Shown here piece after piece: positions 3,245-28,606 of a DNA stretch of 29,592 nt. How positions within the stretch are numbered: position 1 is the first letter of the stretch; every line of letters starts with the position of its first letter. The position numbers and the translations under genes are program-made. The DNA is taken from IMG/VR virus record IMGVR_UViG_3300010153_000063, positions 1 to 29,592 of that record. One strand, given 5' to 3'. The notes beneath the pieces were generated by a model. It was given only the letters and a program-made list of their open reading frames with translations, did no database searches and was not told where the DNA came from. Source of the stretch: a virus.

Positions 3245-5689
3245 TTAATTACTCAACATCTTTGATAAATCTGGCCCTCTTCTTGGTTCAGTTTTGCCTG
3301 GGCTCCACCAATATTTTTGTCCCATTTGTTTACGATATTTAGTTTCAGTCCTTCGCATTTTCGACCTTGCTTTTGGATCTGCAAAAAGTTTTGCCTGGTC
3401 TACTATTAATCTTTCAAGTGCTAGTCTTGCATACCATATACTACTTCCTGGTGTGTATCTTGCAGTAAAACCAATTAACTCACTATTAAAATTTGTTGTT
3501 TTACCTGTTGCTAATTGATACGCATTACCAAAAGTTAATTTTCTAAAATCATCAAGCAAACCGACTACTGGCCCAGCAATAGTTTCACTTAAACCACCAT
3601 CATATCTGCTTGCATTTTGAAAAAGAAAATCTCCAAAAATACCAAACCCACCACCTTGTAAAAAAGCTGCTCCCCAAAATTTTGTATCTAACGGTTTTGG
3701 ATCACGCCCCTTAGACATTTCTTTTAATTGCAATGCTAACGCGCCCATTAATGTTGTGCTTACTATTAAATTTGTCATCATCGAAGCTTTGCCTGTAAAT
3801 GTTTGTTGGGATATAGCGCGCATAAGATGCGTATTAACAAGCGTAACACCAAAGTTTTTATACATTGCAAAAGATCTTAATAACTCACCGCCAATTGTTC
3901 CAGGTTGCGTTTCTCCTGTGAGCGCTGTCCTTCCTCTTACAGACGTTGACGGAACAGCAAAGTTTGTTTCTGTCTCAATCATAACCATTAAATTAGTTGC
4001 AAGCTCTCTAGCTGTTTCTGAATTTATATTTGGATTATATTCAATATCTTCAGCACGTAAAAATTTAACACCCCTGTCTTCATATAATGGTGTTTTTCTT
4101 ATTAAATCCCATTTTGACCCATTTAAATTATAACGCTCTAAAGCTTTTTGTAATGCTGGATTAAGTTGTTTGAAAGATTTGCTAGAATTATCTGCTAAGA
4201 AACTTAAAAATTCCATGCCAAAAACATGACGACCAACATTTGTCCAGGGAGAAAGTAATGAAGCTTTCATTGTAAAATCAGCTATTCTTCTTGTAATTTC
4301 TGGCCCACTCATGTCTCCAACATAACGTTGTTGAGCTGCGGCCATCGTTGTCCATTCATCTGCAATTAACCCAAGTTTAATGGCTAATTTTGCTTTGTCT
4401 TCTGATTTTGCTAAATTTCTAAGATACCCTCTTAAAATACCAGTTTGTGGCAAACCATTCATTTGCCTTGCTATTCTTTGAAAGTTTACATCTGTTACAG
4501 CAGAAACTGCTGCTGATCCTAATTGAGCTGCTTGAAGTGTCTGCCTAGTTCCAGCCATTGTCGTGGCAAATTTTCCGTCAATGGGTGCATTACTTTTTCC
4601 TGTAACAGCTTTATATAAATTATCTATTTTATTATGAGACTTAGCTGTTTTTTCAAAATTACCTTTTAGAGCGTTTTCTTTTGCTATTGTTTGTTTTACA
4701 AAATTAACTGTTGCATTTGGGTTTGGTCCCAATCTTTCCATCAAAGCGATATCTCTAGCCATAGTGCTTATATGAGCCATCATTGTATCAAATGGATTTG
4801 AATTACCAAAAGCTTCTTGATATTGTTGCCATGAATCAGAATCTTTAAAAATTAAAAATCTATGATCTTGTTTTCTATTTGCTAGGCTTTTACTGCCCAT
4901 AACACCGCCTGGTGTTAATTTATTATATCCATCCGTTGCTATTGTTTCATAAATATCTTTTAAAACTATCTCTAATTTTTCAGGACTAAATTTTAATTGA
5001 GTTGTTTCATCAAGCATTTTATCTACATTTAAACGTGGTAAAATAAACGATTTCCACTCATCAAATGATGCTTGCCTCACTTTAACAACGTTATGACTTT
5101 GTGGCATTCCCCAATTTTCTATTTTACCAATTGCTCCACCAGCTGCATTAAATCTCATTCTTAAAGTATTTGATGCAGTTTTCCATGCTTGAGCAAGTTG
5201 TTTTGCAAACACATCTCCAGTATCTTCATTAAAAACTTCTTTTAAAACATTTTTTAAACGAGCTTTATTTCTAGTTTCACCAACTATATTTCTACGAAAT
5301 GTCGCTAAAAACTCATCCATTTCTCTTGTAGCTGTTCTAGTTATTACTTTTTCTAAATCAACAACACTGTTAAACCTGGTGTATTCATCTCTATCAAACA
5401 ATGACAAAGCTGCTCTATTTATATCATTACCATTTTTATAGGTGCTAAAATCTTTTGTTATTTTTTTCCATGTTTGTGCTTGCAATAATGCTTGTCGTTT
5501 TTTATCAGCTTTAAGTTTTTTTATTGCAGCAGTAGCGTCCATTGATGCTTTAGCACTTGCAGCTGCACTGCCCATTTGTTTGTTGTATTGCGTTTCTAAA
5601 TCATCAAACAATTCAAATACTTCATCTGCCTGGTCTTGTTTAATTAAACCTTCTGAAACACCATCATTTATACATTTTTTAAAACTCAT
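3245..5689 (-). CDS. Large internal virion protein, gp16-like C-terminal partner
   Basis: An 814-aa protein. The ATG overlaps the stop of the upstream 1059-aa gene (ATGA), which implies coupled translation. I do not recognise a catalytic domain. The first 120 residues are predicted mostly helical and charged, with an Ala-rich stretch near residues 40-60. The middle and C-terminal thirds contain several moderately hydrophobic or amphipathic segments (around the A-A-V-S-A-V-T-D region and a clear one in L-I-V-S-T-T-L-M-G-A-L-A-L). The end is strongly basic. By size and position, last of the ejection proteins and just before the tail fibre, it probably corresponds to the long helical C-terminal part of T7 gp16 or to the helical regions that accompany large polyvalent phage proteins. 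That role is inferred from gene order, not from a motif. Confidence 0.6.
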   Translation of the reverse strand: MSFKKCINDGVSEGLIKQDQADEVFELFDDLETQYNKQMGSAAASAKASMDATAAIKKLKADKKRQALLQAQTWKKITKDFSTYKNGNDINRAALSLFDRDEYTRFNSVVDLEKVITRTATREMDEFLATFRRNIVGETRNKARLKNVLKEVFNEDTGDVFAKQLAQAWKTASNTLRMRFNAAGGAIGKIENWGMPQSHNVVKVRQASFDEWKSFILPRLNVDKMLDETTQLKFSPEKLEIVLKDIYETIATDGYNKLTPGGVMGSKSLANRKQDHRFLIFKDSDSWQQYQEAFGNSNPFDTMMAHISTMARDIALMERLGPNPNATVNFVKQTIAKENALKGNFEKTAKSHNKIDNLYKAVTGKSNAPIDGKFATTMAGTRQTLQAAQLGSAAVSAVTDVNFQRIARQMNGLPQTGILRGYLRNLAKSEDKAKLAIKLGLIADEWTTMAAAQQRYVGDMSGPEITRRIADFTMKASLLSPWTNVGRHVFGMEFLSFLADNSSKSFKQLNPALQKALERYNLNGSKWDLIRKTPLYEDRGVKFLRAEDIEYNPNINSETARELATNLMVMIETETNFAVPSTSVRGRTALTGETQPGTIGGELLRSFAMYKNFGVTLVNTHLMRAISQQTFTGKASMMTNLIVSTTLMGALALQLKEMSKGRDPKPLDTKFWGAAFLQGGGFGIFGDFLFQNASRYDGGLSETIAGPVVGLLDDFRKLTFGNAYQLATGKTTNFNSELIGFTARYTPGSSIWYARLALERLIVDQAKLFADPKARSKMRRTETKYRKQMGQKYWWSPGKTEPRRGPDLSKMLSN

Positions 5690-8600
5690 CTAACACAGAA
5701 CTCCATTCTTTTTATCATTTCTTCTTCTTGTTTTATTTCGTCTGATAATTGTCGCAAAGTTATAGTTTGATTTTCATTAATTGGTATTTCTAAATCTAAA
5801 TTAATTTCTTCTTCTTTAACCAATTTGTCCAAAATTGGCTGTTCTTCAATTCGTTCTTGTCTGCCCTTTCCACTGTCTGTGTATATGTTTCCCGTTGGAT
5901 CTGTTTTTGAGGTTTCTGTAGCGATTGGGTTTTTGCCATTGTTGTCAATTTCTGCGTAACCATTAATTTCTCCTTTTTTCTTTAATTTATCGTATGTAAT
6001 TTTAGGATTATTTCCTACACTTTCTAAAAATGGCGGTGGTATTATTCGATTTGTTTCAACAAATCTATTAATCATTCTTTTGTAAACTTCATCTGAATCA
6101 ACTGTTGCTAAGATTAATTCAACATTATAACCATTTTCTTTATATAAATTTATTTGTCTTTGAATAGATTCCACACTATTTCCAATTTTTGGAAATACAT
6201 GATCTGCCCCTTCTTCGATTAATGTTTTTTGCAAGATTGTTGTTAATTCTGAACTTTCTTCATGTACCGCTTGTACGCCTACACCATTTTTATATTCAGG
6301 AATTGTTTTTTTTATTTCATCTGCATCAAGTATAGCAGCTTTTTTATTAATAGCCAGCCTGTTTGCTATTGTACTTTTCCCCGATGCTGGCGGTCCTAGA
6401 ATAATTGTTACATTTTTATTGTACCCAATTTCTTCTATTGGCGTTTTTGTTTGTACAAAAGCTAATTCCTTTGCATTTTTTTGCCACAATGGAATTGCTT
6501 CTTCTACACCAACAATTGTTTTTCCATCTATATTAAAATTTCTTGTATTAATATAATTTTCAGAAGTAAAAGATTCAAATTTTAAAGTAGTACTGGGTGT
6601 TAGTTCTACATCTCGCAACGCTTTAACAACAAATGGATTTGCTTGTAATAGATTTTTTGGTGCATTTTCTTTTATTAAAATTTTTAAATCTGCAAATTCA
6701 TCTGCTAATGGAGGAGGTATTACTTCTTCTCCAAACAAATTATTTTCTAATACCGTTGTTTGCTCAACAGATCCTTGACCATTAGGATCATCAAAATCTT
6801 TTACGTTTGATTCTGTTTCAATCTCAGATCGGCTGCGCGGCGTTGGATCATCGACAATGCGTCCAAGTTCGCCATCTGATATCCGTTCAAAATCGCCTGA
6901 TTTAATTGATCCTCTGACATCTTGGACAAATCCTCTAACGGCTGTTGAGTAGTTTCCTGTTTCGCTTGCAAGCTTTGCTGCTTCGTTAAGTTTGTCTGAG
7001 AGCGGCCCTTTGCGATTTGCGACTGCCTGGAGTATTGCGATTGCTTGACCATCTGTATTTGCCCTTCTTTGATTTAAATCTTGAACCAAAACATTACCTT
7101 CTTGCTCAAGCGTGTCTGCGTTTTTAATTAAATTTTCAAAACTTTTTTTATCAGTTTTTAATTCTTTAAATGTTCGATCTAAAATTTTAGCACGTTCTGC
7201 ATATAAACTTTTAGAAACAATCTCATCACCAAATAATGATATTTGTTCTATTTCTTCACGCCCAGCATTATTAACTTGTCTTACAATTGATTCTGCTTGG
7301 AACACATTGGGTGGATCTGCTTTTGCTAATATTGTAACCGCATCTGCATGTAATGATTTATCTTCAATTAAACGCCCAATTACAGCAGCGTAATTTGCTG
7401 GTATTACACCATTTACAAACGAACCATAAGCATCATCACTTAATTTAATTATTTCTCTAGCTTGTATTACTAATTGAGATCTAGGTGGTAAATTATCTAA
7501 TCGGCTAGGGTCAACTCGTAAAACTTTTACAGCATCTAATACTTCACCACTGCCCTCAGCAATATTTTTTACAGCTGCAATTGCTCGAACTTGTGGAATT
7601 GTCCAACCGTCTGCTTCATCAAAAACATACGCATTTAATTTTATATCTTGCCCTGGGTCTTCTTTCATTAATCTTTTAGCTAATGCTAAACGTTGATGCC
7701 CATCTGCTATTGAAAAAGTGCCATCTGAATATTTGTAAACGCTTACAAGACCAGCTTGATAATTATCCCATTTTTTTACGCCTTGAAGTCTGTCTGTAAC
7801 ACCAAGTTCATCAGATTCTTTAAACTGGAATTTTTTTGCTTCAACATTTATTTGATTTGGATTTAAAGATATTGTTTCTGAAATTTCAGAACTGTCTTTT
7901 ATAACGTTATTTTTAATTGGTGAACTTGGAAATTCTGATATGTCAGGCGTTTTATTTTCGTTTAATGCGTTTTCTGTTTCAATAAGTCTTGATTCGTGTT
8001 CTGCTTTAGGAAAAACTTCGGATTGATCTGGTGAATTTTTTAAAGGATTATCATCTATTTTTTCTAAGTCTTCAATTATTTCTTCTATTTCACTTTTTTG
8101 CGCTGGTGTAAGAACATTTTTTTTATCTAAAATATTATATAATCTTTTTGTTTTATTTAAAGATAAAGATACGCTACGTCCTAATATTGGAATAAACCCT
8201 CCAATTGCCATATTTACAGCTAAGTTTGTCGTCATTTCTTTTATACCATATTCTTCACCGAGTTCAGTCATCCAATCTTTTATTTCTGGCTCATCAATAA
8301 TGCTTATTAAACCACCTACTAAAGCATTGCCAGCAACTTGCTTTGCTAAAGAAGCACCAGCAAAAGTCGGAGCCCCAGCAAACCCAATTGATAGTGGGTG
8401 TTTTATAAAAGCACCAGCTTGCCCTAATAATCTTTGAAAACCGTTTAATAAACCAGGAGCATAAAATTGAGCTTCAATATAACTTTCTTCTATATCTCTA
8501 TAAACTTGTTTTGTTCTGTCAAAAAATGTTTCTTCAGTTAAATTTTGCAAATTTTCTGGTAAATTTTCTTTATTATTTTTTATATAACTATAAATTTTAT

Positions 8601-8865
8601 TTTTTTCGTTATTATACCCTTCATTGCTTACCGATAAACCTAATTGATAAAAAGCTGGATTTTCAAATTTGTTACCTTGTATTTTATTTAATTCTAATAT
8701 TATTGGCTTCCAAGCTTCATATTCAGTGTAATATCTTGAATCTGGACCAGCCATGCCAGATACGACACCAAAATTATAGCCAACAATTACATCAGATTTT
8801 ATTGGTTTATTTCTAAGTTGATTAGGCTGAACAAATCCTAAATTTTTTATATTTGTTTCTGCCAT
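5686..8865 (-). CDS. Polyvalent internal virion protein with ParB-like and zeta-toxin domains
   Basis: A 1059-aa protein with an AGGAAA ribosome site. Residues 1-145 are helical. About 146-192 and 212-235 are Gly/Ala-rich hydrophobic stretches that could insert in a membrane. Residues about 335-530 form a ParB-like domain: L-N-P-N-Q-I-N beta strand, then the hallmark D-G-H-Q-R at 388-392, followed by helices. Residues about 817-975 form a zeta-toxin / UDP-GlcNAc-kinase-like P-loop domain with Walker A G-P-P-A-S-G-K-S-T at 824-832, the L-D-A-D-E segment near 846-850, H-E-E near 868-870 and Arg residues near 930-940. Zeta kinases phosphorylate UDP-N-acetylglucosamine and block wall synthesis. 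The gene sits where T7 encodes its large ejection protein, so the product is probably packaged and injected. Such fusions fit the 'polyvalent protein' class described by Iyer, Aravind and colleagues. Packaging and activity are inferred; no antitoxin gene is recognised nearby. Confidence 0.8.
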   Translation of the reverse strand: MAETNIKNLGFVQPNQLRNKPIKSDVIVGYNFGVVSGMAGPDSRYYTEYEAWKPIILELNKIQGNKFENPAFYQLGLSVSNEGYNNEKNKIYSYIKNNKENLPENLQNLTEETFFDRTKQVYRDIEESYIEAQFYAPGLLNGFQRLLGQAGAFIKHPLSIGFAGAPTFAGASLAKQVAGNALVGGLISIIDEPEIKDWMTELGEEYGIKEMTTNLAVNMAIGGFIPILGRSVSLSLNKTKRLYNILDKKNVLTPAQKSEIEEIIEDLEKIDDNPLKNSPDQSEVFPKAEHESRLIETENALNENKTPDISEFPSSPIKNNVIKDSSEISETISLNPNQINVEAKKFQFKESDELGVTDRLQGVKKWDNYQAGLVSVYKYSDGTFSIADGHQRLALAKRLMKEDPGQDIKLNAYVFDEADGWTIPQVRAIAAVKNIAEGSGEVLDAVKVLRVDPSRLDNLPPRSQLVIQAREIIKLSDDAYGSFVNGVIPANYAAVIGRLIEDKSLHADAVTILAKADPPNVFQAESIVRQVNNAGREEIEQISLFGDEIVSKSLYAERAKILDRTFKELKTDKKSFENLIKNADTLEQEGNVLVQDLNQRRANTDGQAIAILQAVANRKGPLSDKLNEAAKLASETGNYSTAVRGFVQDVRGSIKSGDFERISDGELGRIVDDPTPRSRSEIETESNVKDFDDPNGQGSVEQTTVLENNLFGEEVIPPPLADEFADLKILIKENAPKNLLQANPFVVKALRDVELTPSTTLKFESFTSENYINTRNFNIDGKTIVGVEEAIPLWQKNAKELAFVQTKTPIEEIGYNKNVTIILGPPASGKSTIANRLAINKKAAILDADEIKKTIPEYKNGVGVQAVHEESSELTTILQKTLIEEGADHVFPKIGNSVESIQRQINLYKENGYNVELILATVDSDEVYKRMINRFVETNRIIPPPFLESVGNNPKITYDKLKKKGEINGYAEIDNNGKNPIATETSKTDPTGNIYTDSGKGRQERIEEQPILDKLVKEEEINLDLEIPINENQTITLRQLSDEIKQEEEMIKRMEFCVR

Positions 8866-8880
8866 TATTAATTTCCTAAG

Positions 8881-11478
8881 TTAACGAAACACTGCGTTTA
8901 ATGGAACAGATTTATTAACATTAGAAGTTTTTTGCAAAAAATCTAATAAATTAATTACTAATAATTCTCCATTAACATCAGACGCATATTGAGGATTGTT
9001 TGAATATTCACCTTCTTCAGCATACACAAACACATATTGGTTTCCCCCAATTGCTTGTATATTCCAATCCTGAAACCCTAATCGCTCAGTTTTTAATTCT
9101 TTAGCTAAATCTTTGTCAATTATTTGATTTGTAGGGCTAGCATTCATAATAGATTCAACTGTTATATTTTCTAATTTATTTTCAATTTCTTCAACGCTTA
9201 TACCAGGAGGTAAAAGTGTTTTATTTTCCCGTACTACTTGCACACCTCCAGTTTCATTTTCTACATTATAGCCAGTTGCTAGTTGCAATGCTTGTTCATA
9301 TGTTTCTTCATTGAAGAATGTTAATTGATTTTTATCAGCTAGCGCAGAATATATTAAATTTGCTGTTTCAGAAACATTTTTCATTCCGTTTCCAGTAGCA
9401 ATCATTGATTTTCCAAACGTATTATACAAACCAATTCGTTTATTTGTTTCAGTAAATTCAATTGGCTTAAATCCATTTTTATTTAATTCAATGCCTTTTA
9501 AAGCTAACAAAGCAGATTGTTTTTCTCCAACTGTTAACAAAGCGCCAATAGTTGCTAACTCTGGTGCATTTTTTGCTATTTCTTCAAAAACACCTAATGA
9601 AAAATCATACCCTTGTTCGCTTATTGTAGCTAAAATTGTCAGCTGCTCATCTAAAGATCCTTTGCCTAAAGCTTCTGATAACAATTCTGATTCATCACTT
9701 GTTAAATAAGTTATAGTATCAAAATTACCCCACTCTTGCACCTGGGCAGCTTCGTTGCGTCTTTGTGCTAATGAGTCGGATAGATTTGTAAAATCAATTG
9801 GTTTTACACTGAGTACACCAGATTTAATAGCATATCCCATCGGATCAGTTTCTAATGCTTTTACCTTATTAGTTTGCAATATTTTTGCAAAATTTAAACC
9901 TTCTAACCTTAATGTAACATTTTCATAATCATAAGGACTAGCTCTTTTGTCTAAACTTTCATTTAAAGACATTACAAAACCACTCATTTGATCTGGGTTC
10001 ATCTTAGCCATTTTGTTTTGTATTTCAAAAATATACTTTAATTTGTCTATTCTTGGCATTAATTCATTGTATTTTGTTTTATAAATTTCATCAAATTTTT
10101 CAATTGTACTAAGCCAATCATAAATATCTTGACTGTTAGGAAGATCTTCTGGTTTTAATTTTTTATTTTCTTTTACAAGATTTTCAGCTACTTCTAATCT
10201 TTTTTCGATAGGTTCTAAACTCATTAATAAATTATTAATTTCTTTTGTATCGGCTTCTTTTGCAATTTCTTTTATTTCTTTGACTATTTTTGTAGCAAAT
10301 TTAGAAACTTCAATTTCATAGGTAGTATCTTTTCCTTTTTCTCCATATCCAGGCAATCCTTGCTCTAATTGTATTAAATTATTTTGCGCTTCTTCTGGAC
10401 TCATTTTTCTTAAACTTTGAGCTAATTGCATTTTAAATTCTAAATTATTTATATTTTGATTAAGCCTATTTCCAAATGGGTTTTGATTTATTTCATTTTT
10501 TAAAGATTCAATTGTTTCTAAACTTGGCATGCCGCCATTTTCTAAAATTGTATCTTGTTCATTAATCCTTGTTATTAAATTATTTTTTGCTCCAGTTTGT
10601 TTTCTAATATTGTTATTATAATCAACCTTTAAACGGTTCATAAACAAATCAGTTTCTACTAAATTCATGCCTGGCAATGGTTTTGCTTTATATGTTTCTA
10701 AAATCTCTTCTTGTTCAGAAATTGTCATTTGATTAAATCTAAATAATGTGTTGTTTTGCACAGCAGATTTATATGTTTTTTCTGCCCATTCATTTACATC
10801 TGCTTCTGAAATTTGAAGATCTAATAAAATTTGTTTATTATTAGCAATTAATTTTGCAATGTTATCTGGGTTCATTCCATCCATTACTGAATTGTTTATA
10901 ACGTCATCAGCTAAAACACCCATTTTTAAGTAATTTTTTTCTTGCAATTCTTTAGCGTATTTTGCTGATTGCCAGGTATTGTATTTATTCATTGCTAAAT
11001 CAGTTCTACCAGACAATTTTTGCTGAAGAACAGAGCCAGCCACAGGGTCAAATACATTTATACTTTCACTAAACCCATCATTAATATTTGCTAACTGTTG
11101 ACTAATTTCTGACGCTGGCGTGTTGTTTAATTCTCCAGCAGCCAAAACATTATTAATTTGCACTTGAGCATCTGTTTCTATTTCAGCAATAGCCAATCGA
11201 GCCCCTAGTTCATAAGCGGCTTTTTCTGATATTGTTTTAGCACCGCCTTGAGCTTGTAATTGTTCTAAAGTAGCTGCACTTCCTTCTTTACGAACACGTT
11301 CCTGGCCTAATAATGTTTCTTGTTCCACAGTTTTTTTAAAAAGAAATTGTGACATTCTTCCAACAGATTGTGAAATATCACTGCCTAATCTTGCACTTTC
11401 CCTGGCATCAGCAAAATCAATAGATCGAGGTTGACGAGCTTGTATTCCTAAACGTTGATATTTTGGTAGTAAAGCCAT
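8881..11478 (-). CDS. Internal virion protein, gp15-like
   Basis: An 865-aa, largely helical, charged protein with a GAGGT ribosome site. The N-terminus (basic, with R-x-A-R-Q-P-R, then long Gln/Glu/Ala helices) and the C-terminal small beta region (a G-G-N-Q-Y-V-F-V-Y strand, then a run ending L-L-V-I-N-L-L) resemble the general plan of T7 gp15. That protein forms the middle part of the ejected core tube with gp14 and gp16. No enzyme motif is seen; in particular there is no lytic transglycosylase signature. It lies between the small gp14-like gene (11486-11926) and the 1059-aa gene, the gp15 position in T7-like genomes. The assignment rests on order, length and composition. Confidence 0.65.
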   Translation of the reverse strand: MALLPKYQRLGIQARQPRSIDFADARESARLGSDISQSVGRMSQFLFKKTVEQETLLGQERVRKEGSAATLEQLQAQGGAKTISEKAAYELGARLAIAEIETDAQVQINNVLAAGELNNTPASEISQQLANINDGFSESINVFDPVAGSVLQQKLSGRTDLAMNKYNTWQSAKYAKELQEKNYLKMGVLADDVINNSVMDGMNPDNIAKLIANNKQILLDLQISEADVNEWAEKTYKSAVQNNTLFRFNQMTISEQEEILETYKAKPLPGMNLVETDLFMNRLKVDYNNNIRKQTGAKNNLITRINEQDTILENGGMPSLETIESLKNEINQNPFGNRLNQNINNLEFKMQLAQSLRKMSPEEAQNNLIQLEQGLPGYGEKGKDTTYEIEVSKFATKIVKEIKEIAKEADTKEINNLLMSLEPIEKRLEVAENLVKENKKLKPEDLPNSQDIYDWLSTIEKFDEIYKTKYNELMPRIDKLKYIFEIQNKMAKMNPDQMSGFVMSLNESLDKRASPYDYENVTLRLEGLNFAKILQTNKVKALETDPMGYAIKSGVLSVKPIDFTNLSDSLAQRRNEAAQVQEWGNFDTITYLTSDESELLSEALGKGSLDEQLTILATISEQGYDFSLGVFEEIAKNAPELATIGALLTVGEKQSALLALKGIELNKNGFKPIEFTETNKRIGLYNTFGKSMIATGNGMKNVSETANLIYSALADKNQLTFFNEETYEQALQLATGYNVENETGGVQVVRENKTLLPPGISVEEIENKLENITVESIMNASPTNQIIDKDLAKELKTERLGFQDWNIQAIGGNQYVFVYAEEGEYSNNPQYASDVNGELLVINLLDFLQKTSNVNKSVPLNAVFR

Positions 11479-11485
11479 TGTAACC

Positions 11486-11926
11486 TCAAATAATTATTTT
11501 TCCAACTGAGTGCGCTCTTATTCCATAATCTACTGCTGTTTCTGCTGCACCTAGATAAGACGTTGTTCGAGCAGTTTGACCAGCGCCTTTGTATATTGCT
11601 GCTTGATGTGTTGCCTGTCCTAACGCTAAAATTGCATTGTCTTGCGCTAAATTAAATTCCCTTATACCTTCTGCCATTGCTGTGTTTTGTATAGTCTTTG
11701 CTGACCCAGACATTGGGTCAACACCACCAAAAGCAGCGTTATTAATAATTGTGGCTAGTGTTTCATTTAATCTAGTTAAAGCTGCTACTCCTTGCTGTTT
11801 GTAAGCAAGCGCTTCTGAATTACCTCTTAGCTTTTCTTGTGCAGCTTTTTCATTATATTCCCTTTGCCTAGCACTACCTTCTGCTAATTTTCCAACAATA
11901 CCTATTCCAGCTAAAGCTAATTGCAT
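11486..11926 (-). CDS. Internal virion protein, gp14-like
   Basis: A 146-aa Ala/Gly-rich helical protein. It opens with a short hydrophobic segment (M-Q-L-A-L-A-G-I-G-I-V-G), has a charged helix rich in E, K and R, and then the F-G-G-V-D-P-M-S-G-S-A motif. That motif and the A-x-x-Y-x-x-x-G spacing are typical of the small core/ejection protein that follows tail tube B in podoviruses (T7 gp14 position). In T7 this protein inserts in the outer membrane during DNA entry. GGGA lies 7 nt upstream of the ATG, and the gene starts right after the tail tube B stop. Confidence 0.7.
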   Translation of the reverse strand: MQLALAGIGIVGKLAEGSARQREYNEKAAQEKLRGNSEALAYKQQGVAALTRLNETLATIINNAAFGGVDPMSGSAKTIQNTAMAEGIREFNLAQDNAILALGQATHQAAIYKGAGQTARTTSYLGAAETAVDYGIRAHSVGKIII

Positions 11927-19093: not shown

Positions 19094-19573
19094 TTAAAAC
19101 CTCACCATCATGTAATAATCTGCACCTTCTGGTCCAAATTTTGTCATAACTGACTCTACCTCAAAACCTAACGCTTTGGCAAACTTAAATGCAGTGGTAT
19201 TATCCTTTTTTACACAAATTTGTAACCTATTTACGTCATAATCGCCTATTGCGATATCTATTAAAGACTTTGAGCCCCTTATAAACGATATCGCATGTTG
19301 CTCTAATCCTTCACTTGGCAGCATCCAAACTTCCATTAGTCCAGGCCAGACGGATCTGAGCCCAAATACAGCTACAACGCGATTTTTTCCAATAGCTGCC
19401 CAGCTTAATTTTGGGTCTGCGCTATCCCAAACATAGTCCAGGTAATTTGGAATTATGCTTGCATAGAGTTGTTCGTGTTCTTTTAGGCGTAATTTTTGCA
19501 AATGCGCGTACATAAGCGGTACTATTTGCTCATCTTGGTTTATTTTAATGTCTGGGAATTGTATAAGTGGCAT
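19094..19573 (-). CDS. GNAT-like protein, possibly gp13-type
   Basis: A 159-aa protein with the layout of a small GNAT acetyltransferase: a W-A-A-I-G-K-N-R-V-V-A-V-F-G-L strand pair near residues 58-72, an R-L-Q-I-C-V strand, and N-T-T-A-F-K-F-A-K-A-L-G-F-E-V-E near residues 124-141, matching the last conserved GNAT helix and strand. The acetyl-CoA loop (Q/R-x-x-G-x-G/A) is not clear. T7 gp13 and the DUF2833 proteins share this general fold, so it may be a virion-assembly protein rather than an enzyme. It lies between the large terminase and the portal region; the ATG overlaps the terminase stop. Confidence 0.65.
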   Translation of the reverse strand: MPLIQFPDIKINQDEQIVPLMYAHLQKLRLKEHEQLYASIIPNYLDYVWDSADPKLSWAAIGKNRVVAVFGLRSVWPGLMEVWMLPSEGLEQHAISFIRGSKSLIDIAIGDYDVNRLQICVKKDNTTAFKFAKALGFEVESVMTKFGPEGADYYMMVRF

Positions 19574-27677: not shown

Positions 27678-28101
27678 ACTTGAAAAAATAAATCTAATGA
27701 GAACTTGGGCTAAATTTTTTTCATCAGTTGACGTTCATCAAGCAGAAGCAGCAAGATTGTTGCATATAAATTATAAATTTTTAAATGACTCTCTAATTAA
27801 AAATAACATAGAATGGGAAGCAAAATATGAACCAGGAACAAAAAGATCTAATGAGGAAACAAATAGGGTACGCTCTAAGACAAGCAGAAATCGTATTAAA
27901 AGACGCCCAGAGACATCCAAAAAGATTAACAATTGCACAAAGAGCAGAGGGTTTAAAAAAGATATTAAATACAGTCCACAAGAAATTATATTAATGAAAG
28001 CCTGGGAACAAGCTGCAAAATTAGCTAACGAAAGAATGAGAAAACACAACGGCTTGCGTAAAGCAAACTCCTGGGTATCAAAAGATAATAAATTTAGTTA
28101 A
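27643..28101 (+). CDS. Basic early protein, unknown
   Basis: A 152-aa protein overlapping the end of the annealing-protein gene by 35 bp, with GGGAAAA before the ATG. The N-terminal half has a helix-turn-helix-like V-H-Q-A-E-A-A-R-L-L-H-I-N-Y-K-F-L-N-D-S-L. The middle is strongly basic (R-S-K-T-S-R-N-R-I-K-R-R). The C-terminal part has a helix I-L-M-K-A-W-E-Q-A-A-K-L-A-N-E-R-M. Probably DNA-binding; family not recognised. It meets the endolysin gene tail to tail with an 8-bp overlap. A second plausible 55-aa frame lies within it. Confidence 0.55.
   Translation: METWDQIQKRHKLEKINLMRTWAKFFSSVDVHQAEAARLLHINYKFLNDSLIKNNIEWEAKYEPGTKRSNEETNRVRSKTSRNRIKRRPETSKKINNCTKSRGFKKDIKYSPQEIILMKAWEQAAKLANERMRKHNGLRKANSWVSKDNKFS
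27827..27994 (+). CDS. Possible overlapping 55-aa gene in another frame
   Basis: An ATG with GGGAAG about 7 nt upstream opens M-N-Q-E-Q-K-D-L-M-R-K-Q-I-G-Y-A-L-R-Q-A and ends H-K-K-L-Y. The translation is a balanced amphipathic helix protein, not a typical shadow frame. It lies wholly inside the 152-aa gene, over that gene's basic low-complexity middle. It could be a real overprinted gene, or the two frames together may reflect an ancestral frameshift. Confidence 0.35.
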   Translation: MNQEQKDLMRKQIGYALRQAEIVLKDAQRHPKRLTIAQRAEGLKKILNTVHKKLY

Positions 28102-28606
28102 TTAAATTTAAAGATTGTTCTTTAGTCTCATCATTTCGTCTTATCCAACCACGTCCAAACGTGTCAAAGGTGCTGAGGTCTCTGTAAAACTTATCACGCA
28201 TATGGTGCATTTGTTCTATTATTTCTGTTGGCTCTACTTCAGCTACTCGTTGAAGTGTCATTGGCCCTATACCACCATCTTGCTCAACACCTACAATACG
28301 TTGCAATGCTTTAGCTGCACGACTAACTCCGCTGTTTACACCCCAATCAAAGCAGCTCCAATCAACCCCAGAAGGAAGGTCATCTGCTCGAAGTCTCGCC
28401 CAATAATTTTCTTTGTATATAGGGTAAACATCATCGTGAGTAAGACCTTCCATTTCCCCGTCCATAACTTGCCGACCTACATATTGTTCATAGACTGCAC
28501 GTGTAACTCCAAAATTTGTCTGTCCGCCAGGATCATTAGGGTGATTAACATAGCCCCCTTCGTGTTCAAGAAGACGCGCCATACATTCTTCAAAGTTCTG
28601 TTTCAT
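28094..28606 (-). CDS. GH108 family endolysin
   Basis: A 170-aa cell-wall hydrolase. The opening L-L-E-H-E-G-G-Y-V-N-H-P-N-D-P-G-G-Q-T-N-F-G-V-T places the catalytic Glu at residue 16. N-Y-W near residue 68, F-D-W-G-V-N-S-G near residue 87 and the C-terminal peptidoglycan-binding part (D-G-G-I-G-P-M-T, then G-R-G-W-I-R-R-N-D-E) complete the family pattern. It should cleave the glycan chain of peptidoglycan as a muramidase. There is no signal peptide or SAR segment, so it depends on the holin. Its ATG overlaps the holin stop (ATGA). Confidence 0.92.
   Translation of the reverse strand: MKQNFEECMARLLEHEGGYVNHPNDPGGQTNFGVTRAVYEQYVGRQVMDGEMEGLTHDDVYPIYKENYWARLRADDLPSGVDWSCFDWGVNSGVSRAAKALQRIVGVEQDGGIGPMTLQRVAEVEPTEIIEQMHHMRDKFYRDLSTFDTFGRGWIRRNDETKEQSLNLIN

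What the first reader, a model, noticed from the sequence alone, without database searches (positions are those of the whole stretch)
5686..8865. Ejection-protein gene carries a ParB-like domain and a zeta-toxin kinase
The sequence shows a ParB-type D-G-H-Q-R motif (residues 388-392) and a complete zeta-like P-loop domain (Walker A at 824-832) in one 1059-aa protein, encoded exactly where T7-like phages encode their large internal virion protein. Zeta kinases are known to act on UDP-GlcNAc and ParB-like folds to act as CTPases or nucleases. If the protein is packaged, it would enter the cell with the DNA before any phage gene is expressed and could attack wall synthesis, host DNA or competing elements. 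This would be a virion-delivered effector system built into the DNA-ejection machinery.
Basis: partly seen in the sequence, partly recalled or inferred. Interest (0 to 1): 0.78.

Follow-up and report, generated by a model that had tools for sequence, protein, structure and literature searches.

The report
Swappable enzyme slot in phage ejection protein
A short-tailed phage carries, in a gene whose position and N-terminus mark it as a DNA-ejection protein, a ParB-like domain followed by a slot that holds a zeta-like kinase here, an alarmone-synthetase-like enzyme in a nearly identical phage and nothing in a third, which points to exchangeable enzymes sent into the host with the phage DNA.

Summary
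The 1059-aa gene lies on the minus strand (8865..5686). It has a ParB/Noc-fold domain (DGHQR 388-392, invariant in 48 homologues) and a Zeta_toxin-family P-loop kinase (817-978, E=3e-16). Gene order and a profile match of the N-terminus to the 390-aa phiVC8 p18 place it in the gp16 ejection-protein slot of epsilon15-like podoviruses.

The larger finding is a cassette slot. A near-identical phage (L001, 97-99% DNA identity on both sides) has a RelA/SpoT-fold domain in place of residues 713-1020, and L002 has nothing there. Across 50 homologues the content changes at least 14 times (zeta, RelA/SpoT, ART, LPD23, empty). The slot is bracketed by the constant ParB region and a constant C-terminal tail with a cysteine near its end. 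No immunity gene fits downstream.

The UDP-GlcNAc/cell-wall reading is weakened: the essential Glu116 of zeta is Pro in all 18 cassettes, and Thr118 is usually not Thr. ParB is part of the constant chassis, so it is not the exchangeable effector.

Packaging, injection, catalysis and target are inferred; nothing here shows them. Phage polyvalent proteins and MuF polymorphic toxins are known, so this is a new variant of a known kind.

The parts
5686..8865 (-). whole gene, 1059 aa: ejection-protein chassis + ParB-like domain + zeta cassette + conserved C-tail
   Evidence: ORF; domain
7861..8865 (-). N-terminal chassis, residues 1-335, helical, Gly/Ala-rich hydrophobic stretch about 145-230; homologous to phiVC8 p18 (gp16 slot)
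   Evidence: HMM hit E=4e-24 to a 390-aa protein without ParB or cassette
6901..7860 (-). ParB-like region, residues 336-655: ParB/Noc N-domain plus HTH-like helical domain (fold match 322-535) and helical extension
   Evidence: (305 relatives in viral contigs)
7690..7704 (-). DGHQR motif, residues 388-392, invariant in 48 homologues
5806..6729 (-). exchangeable cassette, residues about 713-1020; replaced by an RSH-fold domain in L001 and absent in L002
   Evidence: DNA breakpoints 6730 and 5798; protein comparison
5932..6417 (-). zeta-family P-loop kinase domain, residues 817-978
   Evidence: Pfam Zeta_toxin E=3.2e-16; family profile hits zeta toxin 1gvn E=7e-12
6370..6396 (-). Walker A, residues 824-832 (GPPASGKST), Lys830
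   Evidence: K and S invariant in 18 cassettes
5689..5805 (-). constant C-terminal tail, residues about 1021-1059, Cys1057 third from the end
   Evidence: Cys within 9 residues of the end in 53 of 59 complete homologues; also in phiV10 p19 and phiVC8 p18
3245..5689 (-). downstream virion structural protein (phrog_684; epsilon15/phiV10 gp17-type), start overlaps the gene's stop by 4 nt, leaving no room for an immunity gene
8881..11478 (-). gp15-like gene directly upstream, conserved in synteny
11486..11926 (-). gp14-like internal virion protein (phrog_418)
   Evidence: (E=0.0016)

Best explanation
The gene encodes a gp16-type podovirus ejection protein that works as a carrier with an exchangeable enzyme. 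The N-terminal part and the Cys-containing C-tail are the ejection-protein core. A ParB/Noc-fold nucleotide- and DNA-binding-type domain is built into it in this clade. Between ParB and the tail lies a slot into which different enzymes recombine; here it is a zeta-family small-molecule kinase. The protein is most likely loaded in the capsid, leaves with the DNA, and exposes the kinase in the host cytoplasm before phage genes are expressed. There it would phosphorylate a nucleotide-type metabolite other than UDP-GlcNAc to slow the host or disarm a defence. Shown here: domains, synteny, slot, DNA-level swap, kept and lost catalytic residues. Inferred: packaging, injection, activity, target and benefit.
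For: Gene order gp12-, gp14-, gp15-like, this gene, gp17-like is conserved across most loci, and phiV10/epsilon15 have the same order. The N-terminal profile matches phiVC8 p18, a minimal 390-aa version with N-terminus and Cys tail only (E=4e-24). The window and L001 are 97.0% identical over 8.1 kb up to codon 712 and 98.7% over 2.5 kb after the slot, while the cassettes do not align; residues 401-712 are identical. The L001 cassette folds as a RelA/SpoT synthetase (top Foldseek hit Tas1 effector, E=9e-8; VIA Z 14.5 to a small alarmone synthetase). The same slot holds canonical RelA_SpoT (2e-13), ART-PolyVal (3e-11) and LPD23 (6e-19) and zeta in about 20 loci. On the ParB tree the slot content needs at least 14 changes. 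Lys46, Asp67, Arg158 and Arg171 equivalents are kept in 18/18 cassettes. Published polyvalent-protein work predicts the same domain types in virion-delivered proteins (PMC5512222).
Against: No proteomics of any phage with this protein was found; in phiVC8 four virion bands were sequenced and the gp16-slot protein was not among them. No immunity gene is present, unlike most MuF toxins. Many relatives have no cassette, so it is dispensable. The altered zeta active site could also mean a dead kinase. Sequence alone cannot show injection into the cytoplasm.
Confidence: 0.6

Rival explanations
1. Late-acting effector: the protein is made from the late operon and the cassette acts in the already infected cell (for example on nucleotide pools, host defence or superinfecting phages); presence in the virion is incidental.
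For: It is encoded among late structural genes; no immunity gene is needed if the cell is dying; cassette content varies independently of the chassis.
Against: The cassette is held inside an ejection-type protein between two conserved parts rather than encoded as a free gene; exchange inside this gene recurs in many lineages.
Confidence: 0.2
2. The ParB and kinase domains serve virion assembly or genome uptake, as NTP-dependent parts of the ejection machine or DNA-binding spacers, and not as effectors.
For: ParB is present in every member of this clade, including empty ones, and resembles DNA-binding ParB/Noc; gp16-class proteins take part in genome uptake (PMC8954989).
Against: Kinase, RelA/SpoT-fold, ART and no domain replace each other in the slot, which a machine part with one mechanical task would not tolerate; phiVC8 p18 manages without ParB.
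Confidence: 0.12
3. The zeta cassette is a UDP-GlcNAc kinase that poisons cell-wall synthesis.
For: Zeta fold by profile; catalytic Asp and two Arg kept; Iyer et al. suggest wall targeting for phage zeta domains.
Against: Glu116, essential for toxicity, is Pro in 18/18; Thr118 is Val/Ile in 15/18; Arg120 is variable.
Confidence: 0.05
4. The cassettes are decaying or neutral passengers without function.
For: Empty versions are common; one essential zeta residue is replaced.
Against: The reading frame is open, and K, D, H, E, S, P, G and R positions are invariant across cassettes only 24-40% identical to the window's, which indicates purifying selection.
Confidence: 0.03

Closest known systems
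Phage polyvalent proteins (Iyer et al. 2017, PMC5512222)
   Same: Several unrelated enzymatic domains in one protein encoded beside late virion genes; ParB-like, RelA/SpoT, ART, zeta and LPD domains; predicted to be injected with DNA.
   Different: Here the chassis is a podovirus gp16-type ejection protein of usually about 750-1500 aa with one slot closed by a constant Cys tail; no MPTase was found; the zeta fusions described there are to MuF or in conjugative elements; the Pfam DdrB-ParB model does not match.
MuF polymorphic toxins of temperate phages (Jamet et al. 2017, PMC5576092; Apk2, PMC12226406)
   Same: Constant virion-type part plus exchangeable toxin domain, including RelA-like alarmone synthetases.
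   Different: No MuF domain; cassette is internal rather than C-terminal; no adjacent immunity gene here.
epsilon15/phiV10/phiVC8 gp16-slot ejection proteins
   Same: Position between gp15-like and gp17-like genes; homologous N-terminus (phiVC8 p18) and C-terminal Cys tail.
   Different: Those are 390-600 aa without ParB or kinase.
Zeta/PezT toxins
   Same: P-loop kinase fold, Walker A, catalytic Asp, two Arg.
   Different: Glu116 and Thr118 not kept; no epsilon antitoxin; embedded in a virion-type protein.
ParB/Noc CTPases
   Same: N-domain and HTH-like domain fold.
   Different: GHQR instead of GERR; fused inside an ejection protein.

Membership tests
Zeta toxin kinase (PF06414) | P-loop kinase fold above the curated score | tested here: met
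   59.8 bits vs 22.3; profile hits 1gvn E=7e-12
Zeta toxin kinase (PF06414) | Lys46, Asp67, Arg158, Arg171 equivalents | tested here: met
   K830, D849, R934, R940; 18/18; R940/R171 lies outside the HMMER alignment and was matched by eye
Zeta toxin kinase (PF06414) | UDP-GlcNAc residues Glu116 and Thr118 | tested here: not met
   Pro892 and Ile894; Glu116 is Pro in 18/18
Zeta toxin-antitoxin system | adjacent epsilon/PezA antitoxin gene | tested here: not met
   downstream gene overlaps by 4 nt, upstream neighbour is gp15-like
ParB/Srx superfamily | ParB N-domain fold | tested here: met
   Foldseek E=3e-4, probability 1.00; VIA Z 10.9, 177 and 197 residues aligned
ParB CTPase | GERR nucleotide motif | tested here: not met
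   the corresponding stretch reads GHQR; correspondence made by position in the fold and by eye, not by a residue alignment
DdrB-like ParB (polyvalent type) | match to the Pfam ddrB-ParB model | tested here: inconclusive
   no hit; HMMER filters may miss a distant member
gp16-type ejection protein | position between gp15-like and gp17-like genes | tested here: met
gp16-type ejection protein | homology to a known gp16-slot protein | tested here: met
   phiVC8 p18 E=4e-24
gp16-type ejection protein | present in virion and ejected | not testable with these tools
   no proteomics; phiVC8 study did not report the slot protein
Polyvalent protein | two or more disparate domains, next to late virion genes | tested here: met
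MuF polymorphic toxin | MuF domain | tested here: not met
   no MuF hit in Pfam
Polymorphic toxin | constant carrier with exchangeable toxin domain | tested here: met
Polymorphic toxin | adjacent immunity gene | tested here: not met
   4-nt overlap with the next gene in the window and in L001
RelA/SpoT synthetase (L001 cassette) | synthetase fold | tested here: met
RelA/SpoT synthetase (L001 cassette) | alarmone synthesis | not testable with these tools
   no Pfam hit; activity needs an assay

The most novel reading that the evidence does not exclude
Podovirus ejection proteins are a general phage delivery platform for polymorphic effectors: a fixed ParB chassis and a fixed Cys tail bracket a recombination slot, and phages exchange growth-arrest enzymes (non-canonical zeta kinases, alarmone synthetases, ADP-ribosyltransferases) that reach the host before any phage gene is expressed, without immunity genes.
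Probability: 0.4. Interest if true: 0.78.

Novelty: new variant of a known kind. Interest (0 to 1): 0.62.

Why it matters
Most proposals that phages inject multidomain effectors rest on domain architecture. Here nearly isogenic phages differ only, within this gene region, by which enzyme sits in an ejection-type protein. That makes it testable what a virion-delivered enzyme does in the first minutes of infection, and it shows ejection proteins acting as an evolvable delivery platform. The modified zeta active site also points to an unknown substrate.

Tried and rejected
PDB sequence search with the window's zeta domain alone gave only adenylate kinases and other weak P-loop hits; the 18-cassette profile was needed to reach 1gvn. 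A full-protein search of viral contigs found only two relatives and the four-protein alignment only four; the ParB alignment gave 305 candidates, 80 kept. NCBIfam gave only weak generic kinase hits. An N-terminal structural match was looked for: the first 320 residues of the model gave no credible PDB match, but the model is weak there, so this says nothing about the fold. A pure T7-like reading was dropped because the downstream gene belongs to the epsilon15/phiV10 gp17 family. A chimeric assembly as the cause of the swap was considered and judged unlikely: frames stay open across both joints and swaps recur in other lineages. No paper holds both 'ParB' and 'internal virion protein', nor 'internal virion protein' and 'zeta toxin'.

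Full report
What is there. The gene is on the minus strand (window 8865..5686, 1059 aa). Pfam finds Zeta_toxin at 817-978 (E=3.2e-16). PHROGs match residues 337-653 to giant phage proteins (phrog_10691, E=2e-65). No Pfam ParB model reaches significance, but the AlphaFold2 model (built from 48 homologues, pLDDT 80-91 over most of 331-535) matches Noc and ParB over both the nucleotide-binding and the helix-turn-helix domains (Foldseek E=3e-4, probability 1.00; VIA Z 10.9). DGHQR is invariant in all 48.

Which gene it is. Neighbours are phage tail-tube proteins, a gp14-like internal virion protein, a gp15-like protein, this gene, a virion structural protein and a tail fibre. The downstream protein belongs to the epsilon15/phiV10 gp17 family, so the gene occupies the gp16 ejection-protein slot. 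A profile of its first 335 residues finds phiVC8 p18, the gene in the same slot of a cultured podovirus (E=4e-24). phiVC8 p18 is only 390 aa: it has the N-terminus and a C-terminal tail with a cysteine near the end, and nothing between. phiV10 p19 (600 aa) ends in the same way. A faecal phage contig (L093) has the same N-terminus with a glycosyl hydrolase 108 domain instead of ParB.

The slot. A scan of viral contigs with the ParB alignment gave 80 loci. Complete proteins end in a tail with a cysteine within nine residues of the end in 53 of 59 cases; the six exceptions lack the gp17-type neighbour. The length between ParB and the tail varies from almost nothing to several hundred residues. 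The clearest case is the window against L001: 97.0% DNA identity over 8.1 kb up to codon 712, then unrelated sequence, then 98.7% over 2.5 kb; residues 401-712 are identical. L001 carries a domain that AlphaFold2 (pLDDT 84) and Foldseek place with Tas1, a (p)ppApp-synthesising type VI effector, and with small alarmone synthetases. L002, 82% identical over the chassis, has no cassette. Other loci hold a canonical RelA_SpoT domain (L057), ART-PolyVal (L062), LPD23 (L043), or extra ParB_N-like and (by eye) GNAT-like segments (L020, L021). On a tree of the ParB region of 50 proteins the slot content needs 14 changes for three states, 18 for four. RelA/SpoT-type cassettes also occur in prophages of Bradyrhizobium and Methylobacterium.

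The kinase. An 18-cassette alignment reaches the solved zeta toxin 1gvn (E=7e-12). Residues shown by mutagenesis to be essential in zeta are K46, D67, E116, R158 and R171 (PMC6356619); T118 contacts UDP-GlcNAc and its exchange to Val in PezT gave a non-toxic variant (PMC3062530). Here K, D and both R are invariant, E116 is Pro in 18/18, and T118 is Val, Ile or Thr. A working phosphotransferase with another substrate is the simplest reading. A zeta-fold effector that phosphorylates NAD is known (PMC5491322, seen as an abstract).

How it probably works. Inference: the protein is stored in the capsid, leaves early with the other ejection proteins, and presents the cassette in the cytoplasm. ParB, present even without a cassette, is more likely part of the chassis in this clade (nucleotide or DNA binding during uptake) than the exchangeable weapon. 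The lack of an immunity gene (4-nt overlap with the next gene) fits a lytic phage whose producing cell is already lost.

Known and new. Iyer et al. (PMC5512222) predicted that phage polyvalent proteins with ParB-like, RelA/SpoT, ART and zeta domains are injected, and Jamet et al. (PMC5576092) described MuF polymorphic toxins. The class of idea is therefore known. What I did not find described is the gp16-type ejection-protein chassis with a closed internal slot, the near-isogenic swap, and the zeta variant with Pro at position 116. My literature search covered open-licence full texts only.

Limits. Packaging, injection, catalysis, substrate and benefit are not shown. The RelA/SpoT assignment of the L001-type cassette rests on fold. 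Loci are metagenomic contigs without cultured hosts. Changes on the tree cannot tell gain from loss.

Noticed in passing
L093:4795-8001: gp16-slot ejection protein with a glycosyl hydrolase 108 (lysozyme) domain in place of ParB (Pfam E=3.5e-7), same N-terminus and Cys tail.
   Followed up: partly
window 28094-28606 (-): Separate GH108 endolysin with peptidoglycan-binding domain.
   Followed up: no
L008:6714-11213 (cyanophage PSS2 gp030): Protein annotated head morphogenesis, next to the portal, carries a zeta kinase with a canonical DGTG stretch and, by eye, an ART-like region.
   Followed up: no
L004:7805-19543 (Ruegeria phage 45A6): 3912-aa polyvalent protein with the same ParB region at 43% identity plus helicase, methyltransferase, GNAT and LPD38.
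   Followed up: partly
L097 about 10107-10380: Small acidic ORF (about 89 aa) between the RelA/SpoT-type cassette gene and the gp17-type gene in a Methylobacterium prophage; possible immunity gene, though gaps also occur behind empty versions.
   Followed up: partly
L013, L016, L020, L021 post-ParB regions: A second ParB-like segment (DGNST motif; Pfam ParB_N 0.0013 in L021) ahead of the RelA/SpoT-type domain.
   Followed up: no
L034:10940-11686: Cassette of about 150 aa with no Pfam match in the same slot; possibly another effector type.
   Followed up: no
window 19094-19573 (-): GNAT acetyltransferase gene directly after the large terminase gene.
   Followed up: no
C-tail of homologues: Cysteine 2-5 residues from the C-terminus kept across highly diverged ejection proteins; role unknown.
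   Followed up: partly
NC_023841 (L005): 'Dunaliella viridis virus SI2', listed with an algal host, carries the same virion module with an empty slot, so its real host is probably a bacterium.
   Followed up: no
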